Made by a program: the position numbers and the translations under genes. A model generated the notes under the pieces. It searched no databases, had not been told where the DNA came from, and saw only the letters and a list, made by a program, of their open reading frames with translations. This document shows, in pieces, positions 886 to 22,637 of a stretch of DNA of 27,171 nucleotides (the first letter of the stretch is position 1; each line of letters opens with the position of its first letter). Origin of the DNA: a virus; the IMG/VR virus record IMGVR_UViG_3300044633_000984, positions 1 through 27,171 of that record. One strand, given 5' to 3'.

Positions 886-3174
886 TTAAATTGTGCAGGA
901 GTCGCACGTTTCAGCATCCTCGATAGCAGCCATTTCAACTGGCTTGAATTCGATTTCACCCGCCTGATCGGCTGTGTTGCAATAGTACAAATTCTTACCG
1001 CCATACTTGTAGAACATAACCATGTGCTTCATTAGCTCTGACATTGGTACCTGATCGTTTTCATAAAACTTAGGGTTATATGTGGTGTTGACAGAAATAG
1101 CCTGGTCGATGAACTTCTGTAGTACTGCCATGATCTTCAAATAACCTTCCGGGTTTTTCTGATCCCATAGCAAGTCATACTTGTTCTTAAGTGTTCTAAT
1201 ACGAGGAACAACCTGCTTAAGCACTCCGTCCTTAGACTGCTTAACTGAAATCAACGAACGAGGCGGCTCAATTCCGTTGGTTGAGTTCGATACCTGAGCA
1301 GACGTTTCTGCTGGCATCAAGGCCATCAATGTAGAATTACGGATGCCAGTTTCTTTGAGCTGCTTACGTAGCGAATTCCAATCCATGTTGTACTTTGGAG
1401 CTGCTAGTTCGTCAACTTCTTTCTTGTACGTATCGATTGGTAGAATACCGTCTGAGTACTTTGTTTCATTGCTCTTAGATGGTGCACCGAATTCAACAGC
1501 AAGATCGGCTGATGCCTTGATTAAGTAGTATGACCATGCTTCAGCGTATTCATGGATCTTAGCTAGACCCACTGCATCAATGTTAGAATATGATAGGTCG
1601 TTCCTAGCAAGCCAGTAAGCAAAATTAATGATACCAATACCCAAGGGGCGTCTAGCCATAGTTCCGGAACGAGCTGCAACAACAGGGTAGTTCTGATAGT
1701 CCAGAAGAGAGTCAAGAGCACGAACAGCGAGAGCACAAACAGACTGAAAATCATCGACATGCTTAATTTCTCCCCAATTGATAGCCGACAGCGTGCACAA
1801 TGCAATCTCGCCGTTCTCGTCATCAATGTTGTTAATTGGCTTGGTTGGAAGTGTAATTTCTGTACATAGGTTAGAAAGTCTAACAGGTGCAACCTCTTCC
1901 TTGAACGAAGAATGAGTATTGCAATGGTCAACATTCATCAAATAGATACGACCAGTGTCCTTACGCTCCTGTAGGAACGATGTAAACAGTTCAATCGCCG
2001 GGAGTGTCTTCTTACGAATTTTAGTTGAACGTTCTGCCTTTTCGTACAGCTCACGGAATTTGTCAGTGTCGTTGAAAAATGCTTCGTACATCTCAGGAAC
2101 ATCTGACGGAGAAAATAAAATAATATTACCACCCGAAAGAAGACGCTCGTACATCACCTTATTGAACTGCACACCGTAATCGATATGGCGTAGACGATTG
2201 AATTCTGTGCCCTTGTTATTCTTAAGAACTAGAAGGTCTTCGACTTCCAAATGCCAGATAGGGTAGTATAGAGTTGCCGCCCCGTTTCGAATAGAGCCCT
2301 GAGAACACGAACGCACTGCACTTTCAAAATGACGATAGAACGGTATAACACCAGTATGAGAAGTATCACCATTCCTAATAGGTGAATTAATAGCACGTAT
2401 GCGACCACCACCGATTCCAATACCAGCTCTTTGAGAGACATATTTACCGATGGCTGTAGCTGAGGCAAATATCGAGTCAAGAGAATCATCAGACTCAATA
2501 ACCACGCATGAAGAAAATTGACGCATGCCAGTACGGACACCTGCCATAACTGGCGTAGGTAGAGAAATTTTGAATGTAGAAATTGCATCATAGTAGTCCT
2601 TTACCCATTGCAATCTTGTGGTTTGCGGGTATTTTGCAAACAAGACCATGGCAATTAGGATATATGCCATCTGTGGAGTTTCGTAAATTTTTCCGGTTAC
2701 GCGATTCCTAACCAGATATTTACCTCTAAACTGCTCCATTCCTACGTACGCAATATCAAAATCTCTGTCGTGGTCTACGAACTTATCGATTTGATTGATT
2801 TCTTCTGGCGTATACTGATCTAGAATTTCCTTGTCATAATAATTCTCTGCCACAACGTAGCGAATATGATCGATCAAGCTTACAGGCGTAGGACCATTGT
2901 ACACTTCCTTACGAAGCTGGTAATTAACAAGACGCCCGGCAACATACTGATAACCAGGAACATCTTCTGAAATAAGATCAGCAGCTGACTTAATCAGAGT
3001 TTCTTGGATATCAGAAGTCTTGATGCCATTGTAAAACTGAATTCGGCTTTTGATTTGGATTTCAGATGGTGACGTACCGTTTAGGCCTTCACAAGCCCAC
3101 ATTGTAACCTTGTGAAACTTATCTAAATCTAATGGTTCTTTATTACCTGAGCGCTTAGTTACCACCAGTGACAT
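886..3174 (-). CDS. nrdA: Ribonucleotide reductase class Ia, large (alpha) subunit
   Basis: A 762-residue protein, about the length of E. coli NrdA. It reduces ribonucleoside diphosphates to deoxy forms together with NrdB. The N-terminus (VTKRSGNKEPLDLDKFHK) looks like an ATP-cone. The active-site cysteines are visible in QFSSCVVIES, NLCTEI (Cys with the partner Glu two residues on) and ALCTLSAINWG. The loop MALMPAETSAQVSNSTNGIEP is typical. The tail ends CDSCTI, the redox pair that is re-reduced by thioredoxin or glutaredoxin. The start at 3174 has AAGGA upstream. A perfect TATAAATA late-promoter match (3213-3220) sits 39 bases before the start, between thyX and nrdA; whether it is used is unknown, since nrd genes are normally early/middle. 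Confidence 0.97.
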   Translation of the reverse strand: MSLVVTKRSGNKEPLDLDKFHKVTMWACEGLNGTSPSEIQIKSRIQFYNGIKTSDIQETLIKSAADLISEDVPGYQYVAGRLVNYQLRKEVYNGPTPVSLIDHIRYVVAENYYDKEILDQYTPEEINQIDKFVDHDRDFDIAYVGMEQFRGKYLVRNRVTGKIYETPQMAYILIAMVLFAKYPQTTRLQWVKDYYDAISTFKISLPTPVMAGVRTGMRQFSSCVVIESDDSLDSIFASATAIGKYVSQRAGIGIGGGRIRAINSPIRNGDTSHTGVIPFYRHFESAVRSCSQGSIRNGAATLYYPIWHLEVEDLLVLKNNKGTEFNRLRHIDYGVQFNKVMYERLLSGGNIILFSPSDVPEMYEAFFNDTDKFRELYEKAERSTKIRKKTLPAIELFTSFLQERKDTGRIYLMNVDHCNTHSSFKEEVAPVRLSNLCTEITLPTKPINNIDDENGEIALCTLSAINWGEIKHVDDFQSVCALAVRALDSLLDYQNYPVVAARSGTMARRPLGIGIINFAYWLARNDLSYSNIDAVGLAKIHEYAEAWSYYLIKASADLAVEFGAPSKSNETKYSDGILPIDTYKKEVDELAAPKYNMDWNSLRKQLKETGIRNSTLMALMPAETSAQVSNSTNGIEPPRSLISVKQSKDGVLKQVVPRIRTLKNKYDLLWDQKNPEGYLKIMAVLQKFIDQAISVNTTYNPKFYENDQVPMSELMKHMVMFYKYGGKNLYYCNTADQAGEIEFKPVEMAAIEDAETCDSCTI

Positions 3175-3212
3175 AAATTATTCCTTATTATACGCTTATT
3201 GAATTGGTCGGA

Positions 3213-3220
3213 TATTTATA
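3213..3220 (-). promoter_or_regulatory. T4-type late promoter match TATAAATA before nrdA
   Basis: Exact TATAAATA on the minus strand in the thyX-nrdA gap. The motif is the T4 late -10 box, read by the gp55 sigma factor. It is odd before a nucleotide-metabolism gene and could be chance, because the leader is AT-rich. Confidence 0.45.
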
Positions 3221-3224
3221 GGCT

Positions 3225-3878
3225 CTACTTAATCGAACTGAAATAATGAATTAGCTCTTTCCAAGCAGACTCAGCAACCCAACGATGTTCCTTCTGTGTG
3301 CCATTACCACGTCGTAGATCACAATAATGAATCCATGAGCGTAGACTTCCGGCCATATATAGTTTCGAAACAGTCAACCCTTCAGGTAGAAATGCACGAG
3401 CCTGTTCTTTGGCAATACCCATATTGATAGCTTCAACATACATAGATGAAGCCTTATCAATCATTTCATCTTGCATAGCTTCAAATCTAGCGATTGCATT
3501 ATTGTCTTCTGTATCCAAAGAATTTTGTCTATTCTTTGTATCTTGCAAACGTGTCTCTTTAAACGTAAATCCTAGATCATTAGTAGGATCAGCATATCGC
3601 TGAGAAAATTCCTGGAAAGAGAATGATCTGTGACGAAGAATCTGGCGAGCAATATCACGCGTAGTGGTAATTTCCATTACTACATGGACCATTTCCATCG
3701 GGCTCCAATGATTATTACGCTTCAGATAACCAATGAGCTTGTCAGCTGTTTCCTTATTATTCTGATTTGATGGATTTGAAACTCTAGCTACATAAGCTAC
3801 GAATTCATCAGCAGTTTGTGGGGCGTCAGAACCAGGAATTACAGGCTTAGTTACTGCTACGATATTTGCTATATGCAT
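3225..3878 (-). CDS. thyX: Flavin-dependent thymidylate synthase ThyX
   Basis: 217 residues. The ThyX signature RHRxxSxxxxSxRY is present as RHRSFSFQEFSQRY (residues 82-95), which binds FAD and dUMP. LRSWIHYCDLR near the C-terminus is also typical. The enzyme makes dTMP from dUMP with methylenetetrahydrofolate and NAD(P)H, independent of ThyA. T4 itself uses a ThyA-type enzyme, so this is a non-orthologous replacement. It lies between primase and nrdA; its start overlaps the end of the primase gene by 32 bases. GAGGAAAT precedes the ATG at 3878. With dCMP deaminase (25933-26418) and NrdAB it completes a dTTP supply route. Confidence 0.97.
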   Translation of the reverse strand: MHIANIVAVTKPVIPGSDAPQTADEFVAYVARVSNPSNQNNKETADKLIGYLKRNNHWSPMEMVHVVMEITTTRDIARQILRHRSFSFQEFSQRYADPTNDLGFTFKETRLQDTKNRQNSLDTEDNNAIARFEAMQDEMIDKASSMYVEAINMGIAKEQARAFLPEGLTVSKLYMAGSLRSWIHYCDLRRGNGTQKEHRWVAESAWKELIHYFSSIK

Positions 3879-4935
3879 TATTTCCTCTATATGAATAATT
3901 AGTATGTGTCTTGATACGCTTCCAGGAATTAAATTCCATGTTAGCTCTTAATCCTGAAAATGTATTTTCATCTATCAGGGCTTTGAGGTAGTCAGGTTTC
4001 ATACCGGCCAACACCATATCATTGATGTCTTTTTGAATAATATTCTCTGGCCAGATACAAACCTTAAATCCGCTGTCAATTGCGGATTCAATTTTCTTTA
4101 CAGTGTGAATAGATCTACGTTCGTTGTCGTACACAACCACCATGTTTTCGGTGTTGAGACCTTTAACTCCCAACACCAAGTCAGAACCAGCGGTTGCGAT
4201 AGAATTAGGAATAAACATAGCGTCAATAGGTCCTTCAAAAACGTAAGTAGGTTCTCTAAGATCTACTGTGTCAAGTCCATATAACTTACGCTTGCTCTCA
4301 TCAAGCATAATAGTGATGTATTTCGTGCTATTACCACCTAATACACGACCTTGAAATCCAAATAGCTTTTTGTTTTCGTCAAAGAAAGGTATTACCAATC
4401 TTGCTTCGTCATGCTTGAGTGCACTCTCATTGAATTTATCTGGAATGAACTCGTTGACGAACGCATAGAATTCCTTCACGTAAAACAACCTAAAGTGTTG
4501 TGCGAAAGGAATGTGTCTCTTAACAATATATATTTTAACTGGATGATCTTCTGGCAAAGAAGAGATTTTTGTGGCCTTCTTGAACGCTGTATCAGCCACA
4601 AAATCAGGAGTCTTTAGTTTAGACGTGAATGATTCAATGTCTTCAAATTTAGCAGTCTTAATTCCTGATTCTTTAAAGCGTTCGAACTTATATTCAGAGT
4701 ACAGCGAATCATCTAGGGTTTTAATGAAATTCCCTAGTGACATAGCTGCATTGCAATTATGGCAGAAGAATTTAGCCTTGTTGTCCTTTACGTAAATCCA
4801 TCCACGAGATTTTGTCTTAGACTTCTGTGAATCACCACATATAGGACATCTAAAGTTAAACGAACCATTTCTATTAGTGAATCGTTGTAGTCGAACTGAT
4901 ATTAAACTAATGTATTTTTGATCAATCCAGTTCAT
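3847..4935 (-). CDS. DNA primase, T4 gp61-like
   Basis: 362 residues. An N-terminal zinc ribbon has C30, C33, C58 and C61 (CPICGDS...FFCHNCN). A Toprim-type core follows, with VFEGPIDAMFIPNSIATAGS (T4 gp61 has VLEGPIDSLFIENG) and VVYDNERR. The regions ARLVIPFFDENKKLFGFQGR and KYITIMLDESKRKLYGL also parallel gp61. It synthesises short RNA primers at the fork together with the helicase at 12514-13920. No good Shine-Dalgarno sequence is visible before ATG 4935. A sigma70-like promoter at 4970-4998 lies directly upstream, so primase probably heads the primase-thyX-nrdA-nrdB transcript. Confidence 0.95.
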   Translation of the reverse strand: MNWIDQKYISLISVRLQRFTNRNGSFNFRCPICGDSQKSKTKSRGWIYVKDNKAKFFCHNCNAAMSLGNFIKTLDDSLYSEYKFERFKESGIKTAKFEDIESFTSKLKTPDFVADTAFKKATKISSLPEDHPVKIYIVKRHIPFAQHFRLFYVKEFYAFVNEFIPDKFNESALKHDEARLVIPFFDENKKLFGFQGRVLGGNSTKYITIMLDESKRKLYGLDTVDLREPTYVFEGPIDAMFIPNSIATAGSDLVLGVKGLNTENMVVVYDNERRSIHTVKKIESAIDSGFKVCIWPENIIQKDINDMVLAGMKPDYLKALIDENTFSGLRANMEFNSWKRIKTHTNYSYRGNNAYSKYRSSN

Positions 4936-4969
4936 TACAAACTATACCATTGTTTTTACTGATACCAGT

Positions 4970-4998
4970 ATTATACAGCTGTTATTATAGTTTGTACA
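4970..4998 (-). promoter_or_regulatory. Sigma70-like promoter (TGTACA-N17-TATAAT) before primase
   Basis: On the minus strand TGTACA, a 17-base spacer and TATAAT, with TG directly before TATAAT. The same layout recurs before the DNA polymerase gene and at 19322-19350 and 25921-25949, so it is probably an early promoter class of this phage. Confidence 0.75.
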
Positions 4999-5006
4999 TA
5001 CTTATT

Positions 5007-5423
5007 TTAGAAAGCCTTGGAAATAGCTAGTGACACAGCCCACGAGGCAACCGTAATTGCGCCGATGGCCATCCAAACGTACTTTTCAAAAGTCGAAATT
5101 CTGTTCGTTAGCTTGACGATTTCAACATTATGGTAATCATCAACTGCTTTGATTTTTTCTAACACTTCGGTGTGACGAACTTTAGTATCTGCTTCTAGTC
5201 TAGCTAGTGATGTATCAATATCTTTGTTAATTCTATCAATAGCGGCTAACAGTTCGTCTCTACGCTTTTCAATAGAAAATTCTAATGTGTCTTGTTTCTT
5301 TTCATGTTGACCTAGACGTTGTTCATGCACAGCTAGCATCTTGCTTAGATCTGAAGAGATTTCTGTTAATCGCTGAATAGCTACTTTTACAGACGTAACA
5401 TCTGGTGTTGCTCTAGATGCCAT
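5007..5423 (-). CDS. Small coiled-coil protein with a C-terminal membrane anchor
   Basis: 138 residues; function not recognised. Residues about 10-110 are charged and heptad-like (ISSDLSKMLAVHEQRLGQHEKKQDTLE, then INKDIDTSLARLEADTKVRHTEVLEKIKAV), suggesting a coiled coil. Residues about 114-134 (VWMAIGAITVASWAVSLAI) form one hydrophobic segment. This layout resembles XhlA/holin-associated and tail-anchored phage proteins, but no family motif settles it. GGAG lies 6 bases before ATG 5423. The start overlaps the end of the upstream gene by 11 bases, and a GATAAATA late box (5460-5467) lies inside that upstream gene. Confidence 0.75.
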   Translation of the reverse strand: MASRATPDVTSVKVAIQRLTEISSDLSKMLAVHEQRLGQHEKKQDTLEFSIEKRRDELLAAIDRINKDIDTSLARLEADTKVRHTEVLEKIKAVDDYHNVEIVKLTNRISTFEKYVWMAIGAITVASWAVSLAISKAF

Positions 5424-5727
5424 TTTTATCTCCGACTTTATTTCCGTTTTTTTTCTTTTTATTTATCGCCGAAAATCTTTTAAGGGGAGTTTTTGACAAC
5501 GGAGGATCGATAGTAGCAATATGGCCGTCTGATGAAGATGAATTACCCATAGCATTAGCAGGCACTTCATTTTCTACAATTTTAGCTTGGTATGTAGTAG
5601 AAGTAAAGGTTCTATTACCACCTAGAGAACCGCTTGTTGGACAATATAAAGTTCCGGCCTTGTGGACTAATCTTGATTTGCCACAGTGTATGCATGGGGC
5701 AGTTGTAGTTTTGTTTGTAACTTGCAT
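5413..5727 (-). CDS. Hypothetical protein with a CxxC zinc-ribbon-like N-terminus
   Basis: 104 residues. The N-terminus CIHCGKSRLVHKAGTLYC could bind zinc with three Cys and possibly a His. The middle is Ser/Thr-rich and the C-terminus is basic (AINKKKKNGNKVGDKNG). No function is recognised. GGAAC precedes ATG 5727. It starts 1 base from the stop of the DUF7207-like gene (5727 shared) and overlaps the next gene by 11 bases, so the run 6113 to 5007 looks like one transcription unit. The basic tail is coded by an A-rich tract that also holds a late-promoter match. Confidence 0.7.
   Translation of the reverse strand: MQVTNKTTTAPCIHCGKSRLVHKAGTLYCPTSGSLGGNRTFTSTTYQAKIVENEVPANAMGNSSSSDGHIATIDPPLSKTPLKRFSAINKKKKNGNKVGDKNGI
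5460..5467 (-). promoter_or_regulatory. Late promoter match GATAAATA
   Basis: GATAAATA on the minus strand, 37 bases before the ATG of the coiled-coil protein at 5423, inside the upstream coding region. Confidence 0.45.
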
Positions 5728-6113
5728 TAGATGTTCCTAAGTCTTTCGACTATTACCATATCCATTAAAATCGTATCTAGATATATTGTAGATTCATTTT
5801 CAATGTTATATAAAGTCTCTGGCATTATATTTAGTAGCACCAGGAAAGGCATAAGACAATCATAGTATTGCTTCATCTTCAAATAAAGAATTCGGCACAG
5901 TGGGACCGGGCCGAATACGTTATTCAATACTATCAAGTGATTAAGGATAAGCCTATCCTTTAATTCGCCAGATGTTTTGTATCGTGTAAGCAACTTTTTA
6001 ATATACTTTAGTCTGTTAAGATCCTCAAAAAATTCTTCATTCGAATAACACTGTGGGTTATCATAGTGTTTAGCTGCATATAATAGATAATTATCACTTG
6101 ATAGTTTATCCAT
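5727..6113 (-). CDS. Conserved T4-like phage protein (DUF7207-like), function unknown
   Basis: 128 residues. The sequence LLYAAKHYDNPQCYSNEEFFEDLNR...LKYIKKLLTRYKTSGELKDRLILNHLIVLNNVFGP closely follows the pattern I know from a small protein conserved in T4-like phages of cyanobacteria and marine alphaproteobacteria. It is all-helical by appearance and has no catalytic motif. The gene sits in a run of late, virion-type genes, which hints at a structural or assembly role, but this is inference. ATG 6113 has only a weak GG upstream; it follows the 90-residue gene's stop by 4 bases. Confidence 0.85.
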   Translation of the reverse strand: MDKLSSDNYLLYAAKHYDNPQCYSNEEFFEDLNRLKYIKKLLTRYKTSGELKDRLILNHLIVLNNVFGPVPLCRILYLKMKQYYDCLMPFLVLLNIMPETLYNIENESTIYLDTILMDMVIVERLRNI

Positions 6114-6117
6114 TATA

Positions 6118-6390
6118 TTACCAGGTTTCTAGTAGTGATCTTTTCCATGTATTGTTGGCAACACAAACATAGATATAATTAGAATCACGTGCAATAACAC
6201 CAGCTGTACCATTCGAGCTAGCAGTAGCCGGAACAGTGTTAGATAATGTCATGCTTCCAGTTAAATTAGAAATGGATACAGTCTTTGCTTTAGGAATGCC
6301 TGTAGTATTGGCAACAAGAACGACTCTATCTGAAGCTGCCACAGAATTAGCTTGTGGCAGCTCGCTTAGTTTATACTGTTCATCAGCCAT
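6118..6390 (-). CDS. Small virion-associated protein, fibre/base-plate type (tentative)
   Basis: 90 residues. It opens with LSELPQANSVAASDRVVLVANTTGIPKAKTVSISNL, a pattern seen at the start of phage tail-fibre or neck-fibre proteins. It ends with GVIARDSNYIYVCVANNTWKRSLLETW, a short beta module (D-x-x-YIYVC-x-x-NTWKR) that recurs at the end of such small structural proteins. AGGTA precedes ATG 6390. It follows the 300-residue virion protein after 16 bases. Structural role inferred from sequence style and position. Confidence 0.7.
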   Translation of the reverse strand: MADEQYKLSELPQANSVAASDRVVLVANTTGIPKAKTVSISNLTGSMTLSNTVPATASSNGTAGVIARDSNYIYVCVANNTWKRSLLETW

Positions 6391-6406
6391 AATGTATTAC
6401 CTAATT

Positions 6407-7309
6407 TTAAGCGTCAGGTAGAAGTGTGTCGTCTGATCCATCCGAAGAGATCGAACCAGCAACTAGAGTCTCCCAATGAACTCGACCTGCTCTACCACCA
6501 AGTGTTAGTGTAACAGAACCGTTCTGAGAATTCTGTAGGGTACCAGATAGTGTGGCGCCTGAACCAGCAGACACTGCGCCGTTAGCAGCCAAAATGGCGA
6601 ATACCAAGTTTCCTGCAACCTGAGACTGAGCAAACTTACCTTCACTAACCACAGTCGTGTTACCTGAAGCAAAACCACCTGTTGAGTTAGTTACTAGCGT
6701 TCCGGTTGCTTCAACCGTACCATTTGAAACCAAGATGGAGTCAGTGTTACTGTAACCAGTAGGCGTACCAGATACCACGAATGCAATCAATCGCTTCTCA
6801 CGATTAAACGTTACGCTCATTGAAGATGTGTTATTGAACCCTGCTCCTGGATTCGTAACAGTCACACCGGTCAAAGCGCCAGAGCTGTTAGCAATGAATG
6901 ATAGTGCAGCGTTAACCGATCCGGTAGGACCAGTTACTACAGCAGTTTCACCCGTACGGAAGTTTGTTCCTGTATTAGAGATGGCTGCCGAAACAAGAGG
7001 CCCGGTGCCCTGTCTACGTAGATTCCAACCAGTATGAGTAACACCGCTGGCTGCAGCATTTACCATTTCACCGGATGAAACACCGAATACGCCAACTGCC
7101 TGTCGAGGGACAAACGCGTTAGGCGTAACATTTCCGTATAGGTTGACGTCAGCTGCTGCTCTAGTTCCGGATGTGTTTCCGAAATGAGCATTAGCGCCAC
7201 CGCCACCCTTTACCTGACTGTGAACGCCGATTGGCGCACCAGCCGTAGTAACTGTAGTAGTCGAGCTGTTTGCTGTAACAGCCTGATCAGTTGAACCCCA
7301 TTGTGCCAT
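6407..7309 (-). CDS. Virion structural protein of T4-like phages
   Basis: 300 residues, rich in Gly, Ser, Thr, Ala and Asn with many short beta-strand-like segments. The start MAQWGSTDQAVTANSST and the end GGRAGRVHWETLVAGSISSDGSDDTLLPDA match a structural protein found in T4-like cyanophages and related marine phages; its exact place in the particle is not known to me. The middle (ISNTGTNFRTGETAVVTGPTG, VTNPGAGFNNTSS) looks like repeated beta-helix or decoration turns and appears as an insertion relative to shorter family members. AAAGGAG lies before ATG 7309 and an AATAAATA late box 22 bases upstream. Confidence 0.85.
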   Translation of the reverse strand: MAQWGSTDQAVTANSSTTTVTTAGAPIGVHSQVKGGGGANAHFGNTSGTRAAADVNLYGNVTPNAFVPRQAVGVFGVSSGEMVNAAASGVTHTGWNLRRQGTGPLVSAAISNTGTNFRTGETAVVTGPTGSVNAALSFIANSSGALTGVTVTNPGAGFNNTSSMSVTFNREKRLIAFVVSGTPTGYSNTDSILVSNGTVEATGTLVTNSTGGFASGNTTVVSEGKFAQSQVAGNLVFAILAANGAVSAGSGATLSGTLQNSQNGSVTLTLGGRAGRVHWETLVAGSISSDGSDDTLLPDA

Positions 7310-7330
7310 TTTTATGACTCCTTTTTCTTC

Positions 7331-8698
7331 TTATTTATTTGTTACGGCACGAACCAAGTGATCATGCGACTTAGCAATCTGCTTAGTGAATTCATCCTTT
7401 TCAGGAGCGCGCTTGAATGATGCGTGCATGTCTAGGGCCTTATGCACATGAGCTGCATCTACCTTGACCTTTTTGCCATTGTTGAATTCAATGTGCTTAT
7501 TTCCTGAACCTAGAGACTTAGCCTTACGAAGCTGCATGATGATATGCTCAGGACCCTTGTCCTTAGTTGAATCGTACTTGTGATCATCAGGCTCGTCACC
7601 CTTGTCAAACTGCTTTGACTCAGACATTGACTTCATAGCGTCAGCTTGAGTAGTGTGATGCAACATTCTTTTCTTGTGATACTGCTTTGCATCTCCAGAA
7701 CTATCTTCATAATTCTCTCTATGCCAATTAGCTGCTTCCTTGTGTGCCTTTAGGCTAGGTTGATCCATAGCTGGTAATGATGCATGGCTCTTCTTATCCC
7801 ACTTCATTGCTTCGTCTAATTCAACTTCTTCTTTGGTAGTGGCATTGGTCTTTGCGATATTAGATTTAATCTTCTTAATAGCTAATTCACCGCCCTGAGC
7901 ACGCTTCTGTGCAGTCTTTCCATGGGCTCCTACTGCTGCACCTTTAGCATACTCAGTTGGGCGTTCCCAAGCCGGCTTGATATCCATAAGATGTCTATCA
8001 GATTTTACAGCATAACTACGTAAAGTTTTATTTGAAAGTTCCATGATGGCTTCGATACGGCCGATTTCTTTATCAGTAAAAGTTACTTCTTCTTTATTCA
8101 GCTTCTTAATAGCTTTCACTTCACCAGCATAACGCTTAGTTGAAGTCTTAGTATCCTTCTTGCCGGCGGCTGTGCGATGATAAGACGGATCAGAATCATG
8201 CTTGTCCTGGATGTCGTCCTGCTGAGCACGAGACTTGCCTAGGTATGACTTTAGGGCCTTAGAACTAATTTCATTAATGATTGATCGTGCATTTTCCTTA
8301 ATGCTCAGCTTAGGCTTCAAGTCAACCTTAGTCTTCTTGCCGTCCTTGCCAATCATTTCTTCATCGTCGTCGTCAGACTTCTTCTTGCCGAAAGCAGGCT
8401 TCTTGCCGTCACCTTCGTCGGAATCTTCATCACCGTCAGCCTTCTTGTTACCAAAGGCAGGCTTCTTGTCGTCTTCGTCGCCGTCATCATCTTTCTTACC
8501 GAAAGCCGGCTTCTTATCAGAATCACCCTTGTCATCCGACTTCTTTTTGCCGAAAGCAGGCTTCTTATCGTCCTTCTTATCACCGTCGGCTGAATCAGCC
8601 TTCTTACCGAATGGAGGAGCCTTTTCAGCAAGAACAGCTGCAACGCTATCGATTAGCGACTTAGGTAGACCGAAATTATTTTCTGATGGCTTAAACAT
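7331..8698 (-). CDS. Repeat-rich, highly charged late protein, function unknown
   Basis: 455 residues in three parts. Residues about 25-120 carry five copies of a (K)P-A/P-FGKK/NK unit separated by Asp/Lys linkers, low-complexity and probably disordered. Residues about 130-290 hold two diverged copies of a helical unit: ISSKALKSYLGKSRAQ...AIKKL and LSNKTLRSYAVKSDRH...AIKKI. The rest is His/Lys-rich with HVHKALDMHASFK and SHDHLVRA. No enzyme motif is seen. GAGGAG precedes ATG 8698. Its place between likely packaged enzymes and a virion protein suggests a prohead or internal role. The N-terminal SLIDSVAAVLAE could hold an L-x-E site of the gp21-type protease, but this is weak. Confidence 0.8.
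   Translation of the reverse strand: MFKPSENNFGLPKSLIDSVAAVLAEKAPPFGKKADSADGDKKDDKKPAFGKKKSDDKGDSDKKPAFGKKDDDGDEDDKKPAFGNKKADGDEDSDEGDGKKPAFGKKKSDDDDEEMIGKDGKKTKVDLKPKLSIKENARSIINEISSKALKSYLGKSRAQQDDIQDKHDSDPSYHRTAAGKKDTKTSTKRYAGEVKAIKKLNKEEVTFTDKEIGRIEAIMELSNKTLRSYAVKSDRHLMDIKPAWERPTEYAKGAAVGAHGKTAQKRAQGGELAIKKIKSNIAKTNATTKEEVELDEAMKWDKKSHASLPAMDQPSLKAHKEAANWHRENYEDSSGDAKQYHKKRMLHHTTQADAMKSMSESKQFDKGDEPDDHKYDSTKDKGPEHIIMQLRKAKSLGSGNKHIEFNNGKKVKVDAAHVHKALDMHASFKRAPEKDEFTKQIAKSHDHLVRAVTNK
7332..7339 (-). promoter_or_regulatory. Late promoter match AATAAATA
   Basis: AATAAATA on the minus strand 22 bases before the structural protein start at 7309. It overlaps the stop codon of the upstream 455-residue gene. 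Confidence 0.55.
8377..8625 (-). repeat. In-frame degenerate repeats coding P-A-F-G-K-K units
   Basis: Five related units (APPFGKK, KPAFGKK twice, KPAFGNK, KPAFGKK) are coded by near-identical stretches such as gaaagcaggcttcttgcc on the plus strand. Such repeats can expand or contract by slippage, so length may differ between isolates. Confidence 0.8.
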
Positions 8699-8887
8699 TG
8701 TTGTTAGACTCCTCGTCGATTTTTATTTGAACTTTACTAGACGATACATGAAAATACCGCATTCCAGACAGTTCTTTGACATTTATTCATTCGAATTCTA
8801 TGTTATTTATGTTTTTAATTTTTTAGTCTCTTTTGATTTGGCACGACCTTGAGAATTTTGGCTACCAATTTTGTCCTAACCAAAGCG
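8699..8887. other. AT-rich intergenic leader with a late promoter match
   Basis: 189 bases without a convincing gene; the longest minus-strand ATG frame is under 20 codons. A CATAAATA late box on the minus strand lies at 8804-8811, leaving an unusually long leader (about 100 bases) before the ATG at 8698. No clear terminator is visible after the nucleotidyltransferase gene. Confidence 0.6.
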
Positions 8888-9538
8888 TTATTTTTTGCTT
8901 TTTTTGACATTTTCTTTGGCCTTCATACTGTTACGGACATCATCGAACATCTCCCGGGCGTGGTCCGGATGGACGTGGTCGGGGATTCCCTTTTTAAACT
9001 CATCAAAAGAGTTAGAAGCTGCATGGGCTCTCATTTTGGAGGCTGACATACCTTCAGATCCTTCGGCATCCGGGTCTCTGGCACCGGCCGATACTACATG
9101 GATCTTCTTATAGCTGTACGGAATTTCGCCAGATTGGTTAGCCTTACCATTATACTTGTGGAGGAGGTCGTGGTATTCCTTAACCCGGTCCTGGCCAGCA
9201 ACCACGATCAGGTGGTCATGGCCTTCCTTGTTTAGCTTAGAAGCATGATGCAACAAGGTAGGATGATCTTTATCGGCAATAGAAATGTTAGAATGAGGGA
9301 AAAACCGCTTGGCGTGCTTGAGCTTCTGCTCATTATTCAGTGGGTTTTTCTTTGGATCTACGCTTCTGGATAGTACTACATGATGGGCAGCATTGTGCTT
9401 TTTAGCCAAATCGTGTACCTTATCAACCAACACCTTGTGGCCAGTAGTAGGTGGATTCATTCTGCCGAACGCAAAAACAACCGGTTTCTTAGGTCTATCT
9501 TCACCTTCTTCGGTGATAAAGCGACTATACTTTTTCAT
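8888..9538 (-). CDS. Cytidylyltransferase-like nucleotidyltransferase (NMNAT-like) with a capsid-targeting-like N-terminus
   Basis: 216 residues. A Rossmann-type nucleotidyltransferase: PVVFAFGRMNPPTTGH (residues 19-34) is the (H/T)xGH-type nucleotide-binding motif, and EGMSASKMR (162-170) corresponds to the ISSTxxR motif. NMN adenylyltransferases and related enzymes transfer a nucleotide and release pyrophosphate; the substrate here cannot be told from sequence. The N-terminus MKKYSRFITEEGE resembles T4 capsid-targeting sequences (T4 IPIII begins MKTYQEFIAEA) and contains I-T-E, an I/L-x-E cleavage site of the prohead protease. The C-terminus is Lys-rich. The gene overlaps the upstream ligase-like gene by 14 bases. 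Enzyme fold confident; packaging is inference. Confidence 0.85.
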   Translation of the reverse strand: MKKYSRFITEEGEDRPKKPVVFAFGRMNPPTTGHKVLVDKVHDLAKKHNAAHHVVLSRSVDPKKNPLNNEQKLKHAKRFFPHSNISIADKDHPTLLHHASKLNKEGHDHLIVVAGQDRVKEYHDLLHKYNGKANQSGEIPYSYKKIHVVSAGARDPDAEGSEGMSASKMRAHAASNSFDEFKKGIPDHVHPDHAREMFDDVRNSMKAKENVKKSKK

Positions 9539-10736
9539 TGTTCTCAGCCTTTGCCATTTTCATTTTTGATGCTAAGAAATTTTGTCTAGAGAACTCTGCT
9601 CTGTCGACAAACTTTGCCATATGACCACCACGAACAGCAACAGCGCCTTCAGGAGAACTTTTGGCACCACCGATATGATGATCGAACTCAGCATTTTTAG
9701 CCATGGCTCTGGTTAGAACGTCCTTGGCTCTCTGAAAATGATGGTGCAATTCTAGTGCATCATCAATATGCTTTTTGCTCTGGGTTACAGACTTGATCTT
9801 AGAAGAAAACGCTGCATGCTTACGATCCACAGCTGCTGCTGACTTAAGTTTTGATACTTCCTTAGAGTGCTTGTCAGTCAGATGCTTGATGAATCCATCA
9901 GCTGATGGCTTGCCGTTCTTTTTAACTTCGTCATTAATATGGGTTTCCAAGTGAACCGAATGCTCTTTAACTGCATCCAGTGCCTCTGGCTTCATAGACG
10001 AATACTTTTTACGAGCATTTTCAATATGCTCATGATACTTATTTTGATCAGCAGATGAATAATGTTGTGAATGAGTCTTTAATTCTGGATCGATATTGTG
10101 CACATCCGGATGATGCTTAAAATTATGCCTATCAACATTGGGTGTTGCACCCATGTTATCTAGGTCTTTTCCTTCATACTTGGTGTGTACAACCACACCC
10201 ATTTTAGCATGCTTGATAGCCGCACCGTGGTGCGAGTCTTCTGGGGTTGAATATGTAATGGTATTTGGTGTGAAATGGTACTTGCCGTTCTTGTGCTGAA
10301 TGTCATTTTTAGTGTACATCATATCGCCCTGATACACACCTTTATGCGGTGCAACCTTAGGAAGGTGCTTCAAGGCGTGCTTTAGTTTTTCGACAAGTCC
10401 AGGTGCATGGCCATGGTTGGCTTCTACGTCCTGATCTGTGTAATTCAGCTTAGGGGTTTTATTGAATGCAGATTTGGAGGCAACGAAAAAACGGCCATTG
10501 GAAGGATGATGGCCGAAGACGATTGAAGGGGCGCCGTCATATTTGACTGATACTTTAGTCTTATTGTCCTTACCAAGAAGCCTTTTATGCACATCATCCA
10601 TGATATTAGCAGCGTGTTTGACGCCATCGTTGCCATGGTGAATAACGAAATCCTCTAGGTGGGTCAGGTGCTTGAGCTTCTGACCTTCTGGTTCTGGATT
10701 AGCTTCTTCTAGGAGGAATCGAGTAAATGTTTTCAT
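9525..10736 (-). CDS. Ligase-like nucleotidyltransferase family protein (DUF6267-like), possibly packaged
   Basis: 403 residues. KVSVKYDGAPSIVFG (residues 61-75) has the K-x-D-G motif I of ATP-dependent DNA/RNA ligases and capping enzymes, with K65 as the likely AMP-accepting lysine. GVYQGDMMYT (133-142) sits where motif III (GE/GD) is expected and MGVVVHTKYEG (179-189) where motif IV is. EGAVAVRGGHMAKFVDRAEFSRQNF near the C-terminus may supply motif V. The overall pattern fits DUF6267 of T4-like phages, whose activity I do not know to have been shown. The N-terminus MKTFTRFLLEEA resembles T4 MKTYQEFIAEA and has L-L-E, a prohead-protease site. It is very His/Lys-rich. ATGA overlaps the stop of the HAD gene; a late box is at 10771-10778. 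Confidence 0.8.
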   Translation of the reverse strand: MKTFTRFLLEEANPEPEGQKLKHLTHLEDFVIHHGNDGVKHAANIMDDVHKRLLGKDNKTKVSVKYDGAPSIVFGHHPSNGRFFVASKSAFNKTPKLNYTDQDVEANHGHAPGLVEKLKHALKHLPKVAPHKGVYQGDMMYTKNDIQHKNGKYHFTPNTITYSTPEDSHHGAAIKHAKMGVVVHTKYEGKDLDNMGATPNVDRHNFKHHPDVHNIDPELKTHSQHYSSADQNKYHEHIENARKKYSSMKPEALDAVKEHSVHLETHINDEVKKNGKPSADGFIKHLTDKHSKEVSKLKSAAAVDRKHAAFSSKIKSVTQSKKHIDDALELHHHFQRAKDVLTRAMAKNAEFDHHIGGAKSSPEGAVAVRGGHMAKFVDRAEFSRQNFLASKMKMAKAENNEKV

Positions 10737-11311
10737 GTATCATCCGCGCCATCGTATTTGACTGATATCTTATTTATTACCATAGAATCTAGCTGATGAT
10801 GGATATGGCTAGCATTGAACTCTATATGAGGAAATACTTCTGATAATTCTAAGAAATCATCAATATTGTTTTCAGAATCATCGTACATATGGACTGATTT
10901 AAAGATGTTGTCAAGAATCATCTCTTTAATTAATTTTGCTTTCTTATAACCAGCGCCACGACCCATGGTGTGGCCGAGCATGTGCACCTTACAGGTTATG
11001 CCGAACACTCCCAAAAAAGCATGGAAAAGAGGCATGTTATTCATTTTAGCACGTGCAGTCAATATGATTGAGTTAGGTGATTCAACCAGAGCGTCAATCA
11101 TTTGCCATACTGGTCTAGCGTGTTTAATAAATGAATCTGTATCAGAAAACTCTGAGAAATCATATACGCAATCTGGATTCAGGTTATGGTGTTCGATATA
11201 TTCAAGGCCAGAAAGAGACAGCGGTGGATCTAAATTAGCATAGATTTTTGCCGGGGATGTAGGATATGTGAACAGAGTTTCATCCATATCGAAAATATGT
11301 AATTCATTCAT
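10733..11311 (-). CDS. HAD-superfamily phosphatase
   Basis: 192 residues. HAD motifs are complete: motif I IFDMDETLF (D8, D10), motif II SIILTAR, motif III lysine in GYKKAKLIKE, motif IV HMYDDSENN. Such enzymes remove phosphate groups; related domains (for example in polynucleotide kinase-phosphatases and the RNA-repair 'Swiss army knife' proteins) act on nucleic acid ends, but the substrate here is unknown. The last residues, KISVKYDGADDT, copy the motif I sequence of the next gene. The stop TGA overlaps the next start as ATGA, so the two proteins are translationally coupled. No clear Shine-Dalgarno sequence precedes ATG 11311. Confidence 0.85.
   Translation of the reverse strand: MNELHIFDMDETLFTYPTSPAKIYANLDPPLSLSGLEYIEHHNLNPDCVYDFSEFSDTDSFIKHARPVWQMIDALVESPNSIILTARAKMNNMPLFHAFLGVFGITCKVHMLGHTMGRGAGYKKAKLIKEMILDNIFKSVHMYDDSENNIDDFLELSEVFPHIEFNASHIHHQLDSMVINKISVKYDGADDT
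10771..10778 (-). promoter_or_regulatory. Late promoter match AATAAATA
   Basis: AATAAATA on the minus strand inside the end of the HAD gene, 34 bases before the ligase-like gene start at 10736. This would allow late transcription of the ligase-like and nucleotidyltransferase genes without the HAD gene. Confidence 0.5.
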
Positions 11312-11323
11312 GTTGTTATACCT

Positions 11324-12235
11324 TTACCAAGGATCGCCGGACAATTTAAGAGATGAAGCCATTTTTTCTGATTCAAACTTAAAACGTATTTTCATAATTC
11401 GTTTGTCGCCAGCTTTTACACCTATAGTTTCATTACCAATTTTTTCAAGTTTAATTTTTGATTTATTTAATGCATTTAATTTTTCATTATCAGTAGGATC
11501 CATTGCAACAGCTGTATATGGTTCTGAATTTCCTTGTCCAGTTACTTTAATATATGGAGGAAAAATTTGTTTAGCGTCCATCCAATCTTCAAGAAGATAG
11601 TTTACTAAATCAGAATTGTTAAAAGATGATAGTTTTTTTATAAGTTTATCTCGCATTGAACTCATCATTTTATTTGCGATATCTTCAGTTATCTTCTTTA
11701 TTCCTGAATTGTCTCTAATGTATTTTTTGCGCTGATCAGTGTTTTCTGGCAAATCAAGGGTTGAAATTGTTTTATTCAATATCGTTTTATATTCTGCAGC
11801 AAAATTAGTGTTTAAATTTTTATCTAAAGTTCCTACACCGGGATTTTTAAACCCAATATCGCCTTTAGTTTTTGTTGCCTTAGCCGATAATCCAAGAAAT
11901 CCATCATGCGGCCCTGATGAAAATTTAACTAAAATATCAGTGGGATTTTTTCTTTGATCAACATCTTTACCTACAGCAGCTGACATAGACCCTGGTCTTG
12001 CAGTCCACCATACTTTTTGTATTTGACCTGAATAACCGCTAGCTTTTGCCCATTTTAGAAATTCTGCGGCCATTACTTTAGCTTTTCCTATGGCTCCTTC
12101 AATTTCTTCTGGTTTTGCTTGTTTAACACGATCATCAAATTGCTTTTTAGCTTGAGCATCATACCAAACCTGGCCTGCTAAAAAGAAACCAGTTTGAATT
12201 TCATTAATATCTGATAAAATTGTATTTTGCGACAT
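11324..12235 (-). CDS. AT-rich phage protein with a PD-(D/E)xK-nuclease-like core (tentative)
   Basis: 303 residues. The stretch VWWTARPGSMSAAVGKDVDQRKNPTD-ILVKF-(about 10)-FLGLSAKA has the shape of a PD-(D/E)xK nuclease core: D100, then a strand ending S-x-K (K119), with E12 in a first helix (NEIQTG). The Glu of the usual ExK is replaced by Ser, so catalysis is uncertain. It begins as a predicted soluble protein and has no capsid-targeting-like start. The gene is clearly more AT-rich than its neighbours: two sampled 60-base rows (11401 and 11461) have 18 and 16 G/C. A perfect TATAAATA late box lies 18 bases before ATG 12235. Function unproven. Confidence 0.6.
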   Translation of the reverse strand: MSQNTILSDINEIQTGFFLAGQVWYDAQAKKQFDDRVKQAKPEEIEGAIGKAKVMAAEFLKWAKASGYSGQIQKVWWTARPGSMSAAVGKDVDQRKNPTDILVKFSSGPHDGFLGLSAKATKTKGDIGFKNPGVGTLDKNLNTNFAAEYKTILNKTISTLDLPENTDQRKKYIRDNSGIKKITEDIANKMMSSMRDKLIKKLSSFNNSDLVNYLLEDWMDAKQIFPPYIKVTGQGNSEPYTAVAMDPTDNEKLNALNKSKIKLEKIGNETIGVKAGDKRIMKIRFKFESEKMASSLKLSGDPW

Positions 12236-12253
12236 GTCTGGCCTATTTTTTAT

Positions 12254-12261
12254 TATTTATA
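12254..12261 (-). promoter_or_regulatory. Late promoter TATAAATA
   Basis: Perfect T4 late consensus on the minus strand, 18 bases before ATG 12235 and directly after the terminator at 12268-12293, so the gene at 11324-12235 forms its own late unit. Confidence 0.75.
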
Positions 12262-12267
12262 AAATAG

Positions 12268-12293
12268 AAAAAGGGCTCCGAAGAGCCCTTTTC
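12268..12293 (-). terminator. Rho-independent terminator, works on both strands
   Basis: On the minus strand AAGGGCTC-TTCG-GAGCCCTT followed by TTTC: an 8-bp GC-rich stem closed by a C(UUCG)G tetraloop with flanking A and U runs. It ends transcripts coming from the helicase side and the candidate RNA at 12304-12399. The plus strand also has a U run. Confidence 0.9.
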
Positions 12294-12399
12294 ATAAAAT
12301 ACTAGACTGGGTCGGGTGGAACCCCACCATGATTCCCGACTATTCCCGTGCTTGTTATAGCTCTGTGCCGCTGGAGATGCATCTCCAACCAGTCTTCAG
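12294..12399 (-). ncRNA. Candidate structured non-coding RNA with own late promoter
   Basis: Between the CATAAATA box (12406-12413) and the UUCG terminator lies a compact fold on the minus strand. AGACTGG (12395-12389) pairs perfectly with CCAGTCT (12310-12304), and ACT/AGT extends this stem past a small bulge. Inside are a hairpin TGGAGA-TGCA-TCTCCA (12387-12372) and a second domain, GTCGGG...CCCGAC (12340-12311), with the alternative GGTGG-GGTT-CCACC. No open frame of note is present. It has a 7-bp closing stem like a tRNA but no T-loop or anticodon arm, so it is not a tRNA. A discrete RNA of about 130 bases would result. Class unknown; it could instead be only a processed 3' end of the helicase message. 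Confidence 0.55.
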
Positions 12400-12404
12400 T
12401 GGAT

Positions 12405-12503
12405 CTATTTATGCTTAATGATAATTCTAGAAAGGAAAAAAGTAGGTACCCACGATCCAAAACCAGTACCCTTCTTAACTTTAGCTTGTTTAACCTTAGC
12501 CAT
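12405..12503 (-). CDS. Small basic peptide, 32 residues, function unknown
   Basis: Frame ATG 12503 to TAG 12405 gives a peptide starting MAKVKQAKVKKGTGFGSW and ending FFLSRIIIKHK: a Lys-rich N-terminus and a hydrophobic C-terminal half. A strong AAGGAG lies 7 bases before the ATG. That site overlaps the helicase stop (TAAGGAG), so translation is probably coupled to the helicase. Too short for family assignment; the strong ribosome binding site is the main support. Confidence 0.6.
   Translation of the reverse strand: MAKVKQAKVKKGTGFGSWVPTFFLSRIIIKHK
12406..12413 (-). promoter_or_regulatory. Late promoter match CATAAATA before the candidate RNA
   Basis: CATAAATA on the minus strand, overlapping the stop of the 32-residue gene. 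A T4-like start site some 5-8 bases downstream would fall at about 12398, just before the first stem of the RNA. Confidence 0.55.
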
Positions 12504-12513
12504 TTTGTACTCC

Positions 12514-13920
12514 TTATGCAAAACCGCGGAATTTTCCCTTATCAAACTTACCACTCTTCTTTCGTTCACGATCTTCTGTTCCGAATTGTGTATTCTCCAT
12601 TACAGGCGGTGAGTCATCCATAAGACCATCTTGAGCATTTTCCTCGCAATCGTACATCTTCATCCTCGAACGATCAATCCCAACAACAAACCTACGGTAA
12701 ACGTCAAGAGGGCCGTAGCGGTTTTTGAGTTGCTTAACCAGAATTTGATGTCGTGCTTCCAACTCTTCGGTCGAGATGAGTGCAAACATAAGATCAACTG
12801 TGGCTGGGAGTCCAAAGGATTCTGATGTATTTTCCATTCCAGGGTCGCTGCTCGTAAATCCTTCTCGATTTGTTTGAGTCGCAGAGACGATAGGTACATC
12901 GTACTCCACGGCAAGTCCTCGAATTTCTTCTGCAATGTTTTTGATATAGGTATAAGAATTGACGTTGGCTCCATACTTAACCCTCGAGGATGCACAGATA
13001 TTCAAGTAATCGATGTAGATGATATCAGGGACAAACTTCTTTTTAACCCTGAGTTCTTCAAGCAGATGTCTGAAGTTATTGACGTTAGCAGTTGATGTAG
13101 GATATTCCTTAATAATCAACTTGCCAGCGGTTTTGCCTTTGGCTCTTCCGATCTTGGTAGTAAAGGCATCCTTAGAAAGCTCATGCAGTTCGTCAATAGT
13201 AACATCTAGGATGTTAGCATCGATACGTTCTGCAATTCGCTCTTCGGCCATTTCGTTCGTGATGTACAGGACGTTCTTTCCTGTCATCAGGTTATGTGCC
13301 GCCATGTGACACATAACCATGGTTTTACCAACACCTGTACCGGCCAGGATTACCGTAAGCGTCTTTCTAGAAATACCACCTTTGGTAATCTTGTTAAAGA
13401 GGTCGATATCGAACTCTAACTTCGATTCCTTCATATGATAGTATTCATAGCGCTCGGCAAAGTTCTCCATGAAATCATGGCCAACCCGAGTATCGAATGT
13501 CACAGCCAACGCTTGTTGAAGCAGGGCTGGGATCATTCCCTTGCCTAGCTTGGTATCCTTGTCGTCTAGGATATCAACCGACTTTCTCAAAGCAATCTGA
13601 ATTGCACGCTCCTGACAGAACTTCTCAGAACTGTCAATCAGCCACTTTTCATCAGTGCTTGAGTCAACTTCGAACCCACCGACCGTAGCCATACATTCAT
13701 CGAATGTCTGCTGCGGCAGATTGTCCTTATTTGACAACTCAATAGCAATAGCCTCCTTAGAAGGAAAAGAGGTATACTTTTGAATGTAGTCGTATATGAC
13801 GTTGAAGATTGCCTTATCTGCTTGTTCTTTAAAGTATTCTTCTTTGAGAAACGGAATAACCTTCCTAGCGAATCCGTCATTAAGAGTCAGATTCGACAAC
13901 AAAAGCTTTTCAAATGACAT
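12514..13920 (-). CDS. Replicative DNA helicase, T4 gp41/DnaB-like
   Basis: 468 residues. An N-terminal DnaB-type helical domain is followed by a RecA-like ATPase: Walker A ILAGTGVGKTMVMCHMA (about 191-207), Walker B DIIYIDYLNICAS, and the H4-like segment PIVSATQTNREGF. QILVKQLKNRYGP matches the later DnaB motif. The C-terminus ends in a short basic tail (RERKKSGKFDKGKFRGFA), where gp41-type helicases contact partners. It unwinds the lagging strand template and works with the primase at 3847-4935. It follows uvsX after 38 bases, with only a weak ribosome site at ATG 13920. Confidence 0.95.
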   Translation of the reverse strand: MSFEKLLLSNLTLNDGFARKVIPFLKEEYFKEQADKAIFNVIYDYIQKYTSFPSKEAIAIELSNKDNLPQQTFDECMATVGGFEVDSSTDEKWLIDSSEKFCQERAIQIALRKSVDILDDKDTKLGKGMIPALLQQALAVTFDTRVGHDFMENFAERYEYYHMKESKLEFDIDLFNKITKGGISRKTLTVILAGTGVGKTMVMCHMAAHNLMTGKNVLYITNEMAEERIAERIDANILDVTIDELHELSKDAFTTKIGRAKGKTAGKLIIKEYPTSTANVNNFRHLLEELRVKKKFVPDIIYIDYLNICASSRVKYGANVNSYTYIKNIAEEIRGLAVEYDVPIVSATQTNREGFTSSDPGMENTSESFGLPATVDLMFALISTEELEARHQILVKQLKNRYGPLDVYRRFVVGIDRSRMKMYDCEENAQDGLMDDSPPVMENTQFGTEDRERKKSGKFDKGKFRGFA

Positions 13921-22562: not shown

Positions 22563-22637
22563 TGGTTCCTGTGCGAGGGCTCGAACCCCGATCGTCAGTT
22601 TTGAAGACTGCGCTCTAACCAGTTGAGCTACACAAGA
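22563..22637 (-). tRNA. tRNA with anticodon UCA (UGA-reading, suppressor or Sec type)
   Basis: 75 bases with encoded CCA. Acceptor TCTTGTG/CACAGGA pairs at all seven positions (one G-U). D-arm GCTC/GAGC, T-arm CGGGG-TTCGAGC-CCTCG. The anticodon stem that pairs is CAGT/ACTG with the loop CTTCAAA, so anticodon TCA. Taking the loop one base later gives CAA but leaves no stem pairs. The loop is the same as in E. coli tRNA-Sec, but the rest (7-bp acceptor, short variable loop, discriminator A) is not selC-like. It is one base shorter than usual between D-stem and anticodon loop. Confidence 0.75.

What the first reader, a model, noticed from the sequence alone, without database searches (positions are those of the whole stretch)
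8888..10736. Two nucleotidyl-transfer enzymes with capsid-targeting-like N-termini may be packaged and injected
Seen: the ligase-like protein begins MKTFTRFLLEEA and the NMNAT-like protein begins MKKYSRFITEEGE. Known: T4 internal protein III begins MKTYQEFIAEA, and T4 prohead protease gp21 cuts after I/L-x-E. Both phage proteins have the M-K-x-(F/Y)-x-x-F-(I/L) pattern followed by L-L-E or I-T-E. Both are Lys/His-rich as DNA-associated internal proteins often are, and a late box precedes them. Inference: they travel in the capsid and act on host or phage nucleic acid (or NAD) at the start of infection. Enzymes of this pair are not, to my knowledge, described as internal head proteins.
Basis: partly seen in the sequence, partly recalled or inferred. 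Interest (0 to 1): 0.82.

Follow-up and report, generated by a model that had tools for sequence, protein, structure and literature searches.

The report
Capsid-packaging tags on two phage enzymes
Two adjacent phage enzymes, an NAD-synthesis-type adenylyltransferase and a ligase-like protein of unknown function, both begin with the ten-residue tag that phage T4 uses to load proteins into its head, so they are probably carried in the particle and delivered into the host at the start of infection.

Summary
Window 9525-10736(-) (DUF6267, ligase-like) starts MKTFTRFLLEEA. Window 8888-9538(-) (cytidylyl/NMN-adenylyltransferase-like, "CT") starts MKKYSRFITEEGE. Both match T4 IpII/IpIII (MKTYQEFIAEA) at residues 4, 7, 8 and 10, the positions reported to control T4 capsid targeting (4, 7) and gp21 processing (8, 10).

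It is not chance. In 1.96 Mb of related phage DNA the pattern sits on 135 of 3077 N-terminal Mets against 5 of 9553 interior ones, on about 20 clusters of mostly unrelated proteins. In 35 DUF6267 sequences only residues 4, 7, 8 and 10 of the leader are fixed; a variable linker follows, and both models are disordered there.

Published proteomes bear on it. All four cyanophage CTs I could check that are reported in virions carry the tag. In S-CREM2 every strict-motif protein (SAM lyase, kinase, CT) is in the virion (3/3, p=0.013); S-SZBM1 alone gives no association. Untagged DUF6267 of both phages was not detected.

The packaging inference is therefore largely supported, but virion NMNAT-like proteins were already published. 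I found no paper linking them to a T4-type tag; DUF6267 as cargo appears new. Cleavage, injection and function remain untested.

The parts
10707..10736 (-). Capsid-targeting-like leader of the DUF6267 protein, MKTFTRFLLE (residues 1-10); predicted cut after LLE
   Evidence: F4, F/Y7, L/I8, E10 fixed in 34-35 of 35 homologues, followed by a variable linker; residues 1-21 disordered in the model
9525..10736 (-). DUF6267 protein, 403 aa; ligase/capping-type nucleotidyltransferase by motif order (KYDG 65-68, QGD 136-138, EGxV 363-366, K375)
   Evidence: Pfam PF19782, 316 bits; invariant motifs; Foldseek against PDB not significant
9509..9538 (-). Capsid-targeting-like leader of the CT protein, MKKYSRFITE (residues 1-10); predicted cut after ITE
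   Evidence: residues 1-15 disordered in the model
8888..9538 (-). Cytidylyl/NMN-adenylyltransferase-like protein, 216 aa (HIGH superfamily; FGRMNPPTTGH and SASKMR motifs)
   Evidence: phrog_3041 and phrog_395 cytidyltransferase; PF01467; Foldseek best hits NaMN adenylyltransferases, E 2e-5
10733..11311 (-). HAD phosphatase, polynucleotide kinase 3'-phosphatase-like; untagged here, but relatives in L013, L014 and L019 carry a tag-like leader
   Evidence: phrog_415; relatives MITFFELLIEQ, MLSLSELLLEQ, MLTFLQYLAEE
11324..12235 (-). Basic protein of unknown function, first gene of the presumed operon
   Evidence: no Pfam, PHROG or NCBIfam match
12254..12261 (-). T4-type late promoter box TATAAATA, 19 bp upstream of ORF 11324-12235
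   Evidence: weak statistically

Best explanation
Both proteins carry a T4-type capsid-targeting sequence. Made late, they are drawn into the prohead core through F/Y4 and F7 of the leader. The prohead protease (gp21) then cuts after L/I8-x9-E10. The basic mature enzymes stay with the packaged DNA and enter the host with it at the next infection, where they act before phage genes are expressed. Shown here: leader identity, conservation and modularity; a gp21-family protease in large relatives; the leader on the four virion-detected CTs checked. Inferred: packaging of these two proteins, cleavage, injection. My preferred function, at about 35%, is early nucleotide/NAD or nucleic-acid-end repair: the CT makes NAD or a related dinucleotide and DUF6267 transfers or joins a nucleotide, with a HAD end-phosphatase as an optional third member. 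The confidence given is for the packaging claim, not for the function.
For: Match to T4 IpII/IpIII at residues 4, 7, 8 and 10; published T4 mutagenesis assigns targeting to 4 and 7 and processing to 8 and 10 (PMC9026906). In 35 DUF6267 proteins F4 34/35, F/Y7 35/35, L/I8 35/35, E10 34/35, with variable residues between and after. Enrichment 135/3077 against 5/9553 Mets, on about 20 sequence clusters, mostly unrelated. Virion-detected CTs: S-SM1 MKKFSAFLNEA, S-SCSM1 MKSFLQFLKEA, S-SZBM1 MRFRQFIIEA, S-CREM2 MKNFSSFLTEA. S-CREM2: all three strict-motif proteins of 219 CDS are among its 52 virion proteins (SAM lyase, kinase, CT; p=0.013, motif fixed beforehand). Untagged DUF6267 (SSZBM1_141, S-CREM2 gp87) was not detected. 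gp21-family protease in five of nine related records; in the closest large one gp23 has LSE|A and the protease ISE|A. DUF6267-CT fusions in three loci, two of them with a clear leader at the N-terminus of the fused protein (L032, L052).
Against: In S-SZBM1 two small strict-motif proteins (191, 192) were not detected and the association is absent (p=1); pooled over both phages p=0.048. Virion lists may include carry-over, as the S-CREM2 authors say (PMC10665884). The window's own record is a 27-kb fragment, and neither it nor its 35.6-kb near-identical relative shows the protease gene. Some relatives' CTs have a degenerate leader (MKKFLQKIEED) or none. No tagged DUF6267 has been tested by mass spectrometry.
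Confidence: 0.77

Rival explanations
1. The leader targets the proteins to the prohead core mainly for assembly (scaffold or core helper, as suggested for T4 IpIII); delivery to the host is incidental.
For: T4 IpIII has a reported role in head morphogenesis (PMC9026906); some tagged proteins in relatives are small and basic with no enzyme domain.
Against: Tagged proteins include a SAM lyase, a kinase, CT and DUF6267, which have no obvious assembly role; CT and DUF6267 active-site motifs are invariant or nearly so.
Confidence: 0.12
2. The shared N-terminus is a docking peptide for another phage complex, or an inherited N-terminal extension unrelated to the capsid; virion detection is contamination by abundant late proteins.
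For: S-CREM2 authors note possible incomplete CsCl separation (PMC10665884); S-SZBM1 tagged small proteins were not detected.
Against: Only the T4-critical positions are fixed; the leader is on unrelated proteins; untagged DUF6267 next to tagged CT in S-SZBM1 was not detected.
Confidence: 0.09
3. The similarity is chance or a nucleotide-level feature of the translation start region.
For: Short motif; A/T-rich starts favour K and F codons.
Against: 84-fold positional enrichment, reversed-core control zero at starts, shuffled N-termini give 0.25 against 6 observed in S-CREM2, synonymous codon variation at all key positions.
Confidence: 0.02

Closest known systems
T4 internal head proteins IpI, IpII and IpIII with capsid-targeting sequence and gp21 processing
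   Same: Leader of the same length with the same kinds of residue at 4, 7, 8 and 10 (IpII, IpIII); basic proteins; (I/L)-x-E cut site at the same place
   Different: T4 Ips are small inhibitors of GmrSD restriction enzymes (PMC12373910); these are 216 and 403 aa proteins with enzyme motifs. T4 Alt shows that enzyme cargo exists (PMC9026906).
Virion-associated NMNAT/cytidylyltransferase of cyanophages (T4-GC190: S-SM1, S-SCSM1, S-SZBM1, S-CREM2)
   Same: Homologous enzyme, mostly the same gene neighbourhood, same leader on all four
   Different: Earlier papers reported presence in virions but, in the passages read and the searches made here, not the targeting leader or the cleavage site
DUF6267 (PF19782, T4-GC71)
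   Same: Full-length family member, usually upstream of or fused to CT
   Different: In the cyanophages S-SZBM1, S-CREM2, S-SM1 and P-SSM4 the protein lacks the leader; in the window and most IMG/VR relatives it has it. Not described as head cargo in anything I found
Phage NAD+ salvage and reconstitution enzymes (NadV/NadM, NARP1 Adps/Namat)
   Same: HIGH-superfamily adenylyltransferase that could rebuild NAD+
   Different: No NadV, Adps or Nudix partner identified in the window; substrate of the CT unknown; packaging is not part of the NARP description

Membership tests
T4-type capsid-targeting sequence (internal head protein) | N-terminal ~10-residue leader with aromatic 4 and 7 and (I/L)8-x-E10 | tested here: met
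T4-type capsid-targeting sequence (internal head protein) | Leader is modular: same leader on otherwise unrelated proteins | tested here: met
   about 20 clusters in related phages
T4-type capsid-targeting sequence (internal head protein) | Phage encodes a gp21-family prohead protease with (L/I)-x-E sites in its own head proteins | tested here: inconclusive
   Present in five of nine related records, including the closest large one; the window's own genome is incomplete
T4-type capsid-targeting sequence (internal head protein) | Protein found inside virions, leader removed | not testable with these tools
   Homologous CTs are in virions of four cyanophages (PMC3037559, PMC9602691, PMC9146016, PMC10665884); N-terminal cleavage not reported in the text read
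T4-type capsid-targeting sequence (internal head protein) | Injected into the host with the DNA | not testable with these tools
   Inferred from T4
HIGH-superfamily nucleotidylyltransferase (NMNAT/NaMNAT-like) | GxxxPPTxGH-type motif, C-terminal SxSxxR motif and Rossmann-like fold | tested here: met
   FGRMNPPTTGH and SASKMR nearly invariant; Foldseek hits to NaMN adenylyltransferases, E 2e-5. Substrate (NMN, NaMN or other) not tested
Covalent nucleotidyltransferase (ligase/capping) superfamily, for DUF6267 | Motifs I (KxDG), III, IV (EGxV) and V in order | tested here: met
   K65, D67, G68, Q136-G137-D138, E363, G364 and V366 invariant; K375 nearly invariant. Motif assignment is by eye
Covalent nucleotidyltransferase (ligase/capping) superfamily, for DUF6267 | Ligase fold by structure comparison | tested here: inconclusive
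   Model pLDDT 87.9; no significant PDB match (best E 0.41), though 10 of the top 25 weak hits are ligases or capping enzymes

The most novel reading that the evidence does not exclude
T4-like phages of the cyanophage kind and their relatives use the T4 head-targeting leader as a general delivery address for early-acting enzymes. The cargo is readable from sequence: an NMNAT-like enzyme, the ligase-like DUF6267, HAD end-phosphatases, SAM lyases and kinases. In the window's phage a two-enzyme module is carried in the head and acts on NAD or nucleic-acid ends before any phage gene is expressed.
Probability: 0.55. Interest if true: 0.8.

Novelty: new variant of a known kind. Interest (0 to 1): 0.64.

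Why it matters
It offers a mechanism for a recurrent, unexplained result in cyanophage proteomics: metabolic and regulatory enzymes found in purified particles. The tag lets injected cargo be predicted from genome sequence, including cargo of uncultured phages, and names candidates to test for early counter-defence or NAD and nucleic-acid repair. It also gives the DUF6267 family, which so far has no known function, a place and time of action to test.

Tried and rejected
Chance or nucleotide-level origin: rejected by positional enrichment, shuffles and codon variation. A tag-marks-virion rule in every phage: not general at current proteome depth, since S-SZBM1 shows no association. The 'medium' motif (5/6, p=0.003) was widened after seeing S-CREM2 proteins, so I rely on the motifs fixed. 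S-CREM2 gp12 (Cas9-like) has an internal RFASFMAEA after 17 residues; re-starting there would need a CTG codon, so it is not counted. DUF6267 as a clear ligase by structure: Foldseek not significant; profile search of the PDB found no ligase. Literature searches for DUF6267 and for 'cytitidyltransferase' with 'virion' gave nothing; 'capsid targeting' with 'cyanophage' found only a T4 review. Supplementary tables (S-SM1 Table S8, S-SCSM1 list) could not be opened.

Full report
Context. The window is a 27,171-base IMG/VR fragment of a T4-like phage with gp41, UvsX and gp43 homologues. Genes run mostly on the minus strand. The finding concerns two adjacent ORFs: 9525-10736(-), a full-length DUF6267 protein (316 bits), and 8888-9538(-), a cytidylyl/adenylyltransferase-like protein, here called CT. 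They follow ORF 11324-12235 and a HAD phosphatase (10733-11311) in a tight run. An exact late box TATAAATA lies 19 bp before the first of the four genes, not directly before the pair.

The observation. The N-termini are MKTFTRFLLEEA and MKKYSRFITEEGE. T4 IpII and IpIII, read from AF158101, are MKTYQEFIAEA. Alignment is without gaps: aromatic at 4, F at 7, I/L at 8, E at 10. A T4 review states that the first ten residues of IpIII suffice for packaging, that targeting depends mainly on residues 4 and 7, and processing on 8 and 10 (PMC9026906). These are exactly the conserved positions here.

More than chance. In 89 sources (1.96 Mb of related phage DNA) the pattern occurs at 135 of 3077 Met within 30 residues of the ORF start and at 5 of 9553 interior Met; the reversed core gives 0 and 3. 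The tagged proteins fall into about 20 clusters, mostly unrelated; a few clusters are variants or fragments of the same family, so the number of independent families is smaller. In S-CREM2 a relaxed pattern matches 6 proteins against a mean of 0.25 after shuffling N-termini. Over 85 distinct leaders the codons at the key positions vary synonymously, so selection is on the peptide.

Family-wide behaviour. In 35 diverse DUF6267 proteins residue 4 is F in 34, residue 7 F/Y in 35, residue 8 L/I in 35 and residue 10 E in 34; residues 2, 3, 5, 6 and 9 vary, and a variable, gappy linker (11-20) precedes the conserved domain. CT relatives show the same pattern, although one clade has a degenerate form (MKKFLQKIEED) and some lack it. 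Predicted structures are confident for the domains (mean pLDDT 87.9 and 84.7) but below 50 for residues 1-21 of DUF6267 and 1-15 of CT, as expected for a detachable leader.

Independent evidence from virion proteomics. NMNAT/cytidylyltransferase-like proteins were reported in purified virions of S-SM1 (PMC3037559), S-SCSM1 (PMC9602691), S-SZBM1 (PMC9146016) and S-CREM2 (PMC10665884). I translated all four: MKKFSAFLNEA, MKSFLQFLKEA, MRFRQFIIEA (one residue shorter before F) and MKNFSSFLTEA. A fifth, from S-CBWM1, is cited in those papers but was not examined. In S-CREM2 the strict pattern, fixed earlier, is on three of 219 CDS: SAM lyase (PF23780), an APH-like kinase, and CT. All three are among the 52 virion proteins (Fisher p=0.013). 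In S-SZBM1 the strict pattern is on two small proteins that were not among the 30 detected, and the pooled p is 0.048; the rule is therefore supported but not proven. DUF6267 of S-SZBM1 (MAKNTHLEHLEDD) and S-CREM2 (gp87, MNKATKPLTHIEH) lacks the leader and was not detected, a natural control in the expected direction. S-CRM01, whose virion kinase is cited in PMC10665884, has MISFDQFLSEK on the kinase and MKLFNQFFKEA on CT.

The processing machinery. A gp21-family protease (PF03420) is in five of nine related records, including the closest large one, G001 (167 kb). There gp23 contains LSE|A and the protease itself ISE|A near the N-terminus. These are sites of the same (L/I)-x-E form as LLE|E and ITE|E in the window proteins. 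The window's own fragment is too short to show the head genes.

What the enzymes are. CT has nearly invariant FGRMNPPTxGH and SASKMR motifs and its best structural matches are NaMN adenylyltransferases (E 2e-5), followed by TmcAL and FAD synthetases; the substrate is undetermined. DUF6267 has K65-x-D-G, QGD, EGxV and K375 in the order of the ligase/capping superfamily. Its fold search is not significant (best E 0.41), although ten of the first 25 weak hits are ligases or capping enzymes. The two genes are usually neighbours (within 400 bases in 50 loci) and are fused in L032, L052 and L076, which suggests joint action; in L032 and L052 the fused protein starts with a clear leader. A HAD phosphatase related to polynucleotide kinase phosphatases lies just upstream here without a leader, while homologues in L013, L014 and L019 begin MITFFELLIEQ, MLSLSELLLEQ and MLTFLQYLAEE.

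How it most likely works. Late expression, capture in the prohead core by the leader, cleavage by gp21, retention with the DNA, and delivery at the next infection. Only the sequence-level steps are shown. Function is inferred: early repair or rebuilding of NAD or nucleic-acid ends is my first guess, at roughly one in three, because the module joins an NAD-type adenylyltransferase, a ligase-type nucleotidyltransferase and, in relatives, an end-phosphatase. T4 Ips, with the same leader, block GmrSD restriction enzymes (PMC12373910), so early counter-defence is a natural expectation.

Novelty. Capsid-targeting leaders are known in T-even phages, and virion NMNAT-like proteins are known in cyanophages. 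I found no paper joining the two, though the library is open-access only and older T4-superfamily work may have touched on it. New here, as far as I could check: the leader on all four virion-detected CTs examined, its spread over many enzyme families, and DUF6267 as predicted cargo.

Noticed in passing
window 10733-10780 and 10530-10570: The HAD ORF ends ...NKISVKYDGADDT, nearly repeating the DUF6267 ligase motif I (KVSVKYDGAPS) at DNA level; the HAD protein is also shorter than its relatives and lacks their tag-like leader, which suggests a recombined or decaying gene.
   Followed up: partly
window 22563-22637: A 75-nt tRNA with anticodon UCA (called SeC by ARAGORN), possibly a UGA-reading suppressor tRNA, within a set of about 12 tRNA genes.
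   Followed up: no
L134 (S-CREM2) 3837-13331 and L143 (S-CRM01) 1710-8655: Blocks rich in tagged genes: SAM lyase, Cas9-like nuclease (internal tag-like sequence), kinase and small proteins in S-CREM2; CT, kinase and others in S-CRM01. They look like cargo islands for injected proteins.
   Followed up: partly
L131 (S-CREM2) gp160 and gp145 (gp23): The virion-detected hypothetical protein gp160 contains GFTGAAAPEGPVAGYDPLMG, closely resembling GFTGAAAPGGPNAGFDPVM near the N-terminus of the major capsid protein; possible mimicry of the shell N-terminus.
   Followed up: no
window 7331-8698: Basic repeat protein (KKPAFGKK repeats, KEEVELDEAMK and SKALKSYLGKS elements) next to the pair; looks like another head-associated protein but has no tag.
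   Followed up: no
L129 (S-PM2) 3773-5552: In S-PM2 the DUF6267 C-terminal region reads in frame into CT while the annotated DUF6267 ends early in another frame, suggesting a frameshift or a fused gene.
   Followed up: no
window 11324-12235: Basic 303-aa protein of unknown function behind an exact TATAAATA box; only weak relatives in the loci fetched (L046, L026, L034).
   Followed up: partly
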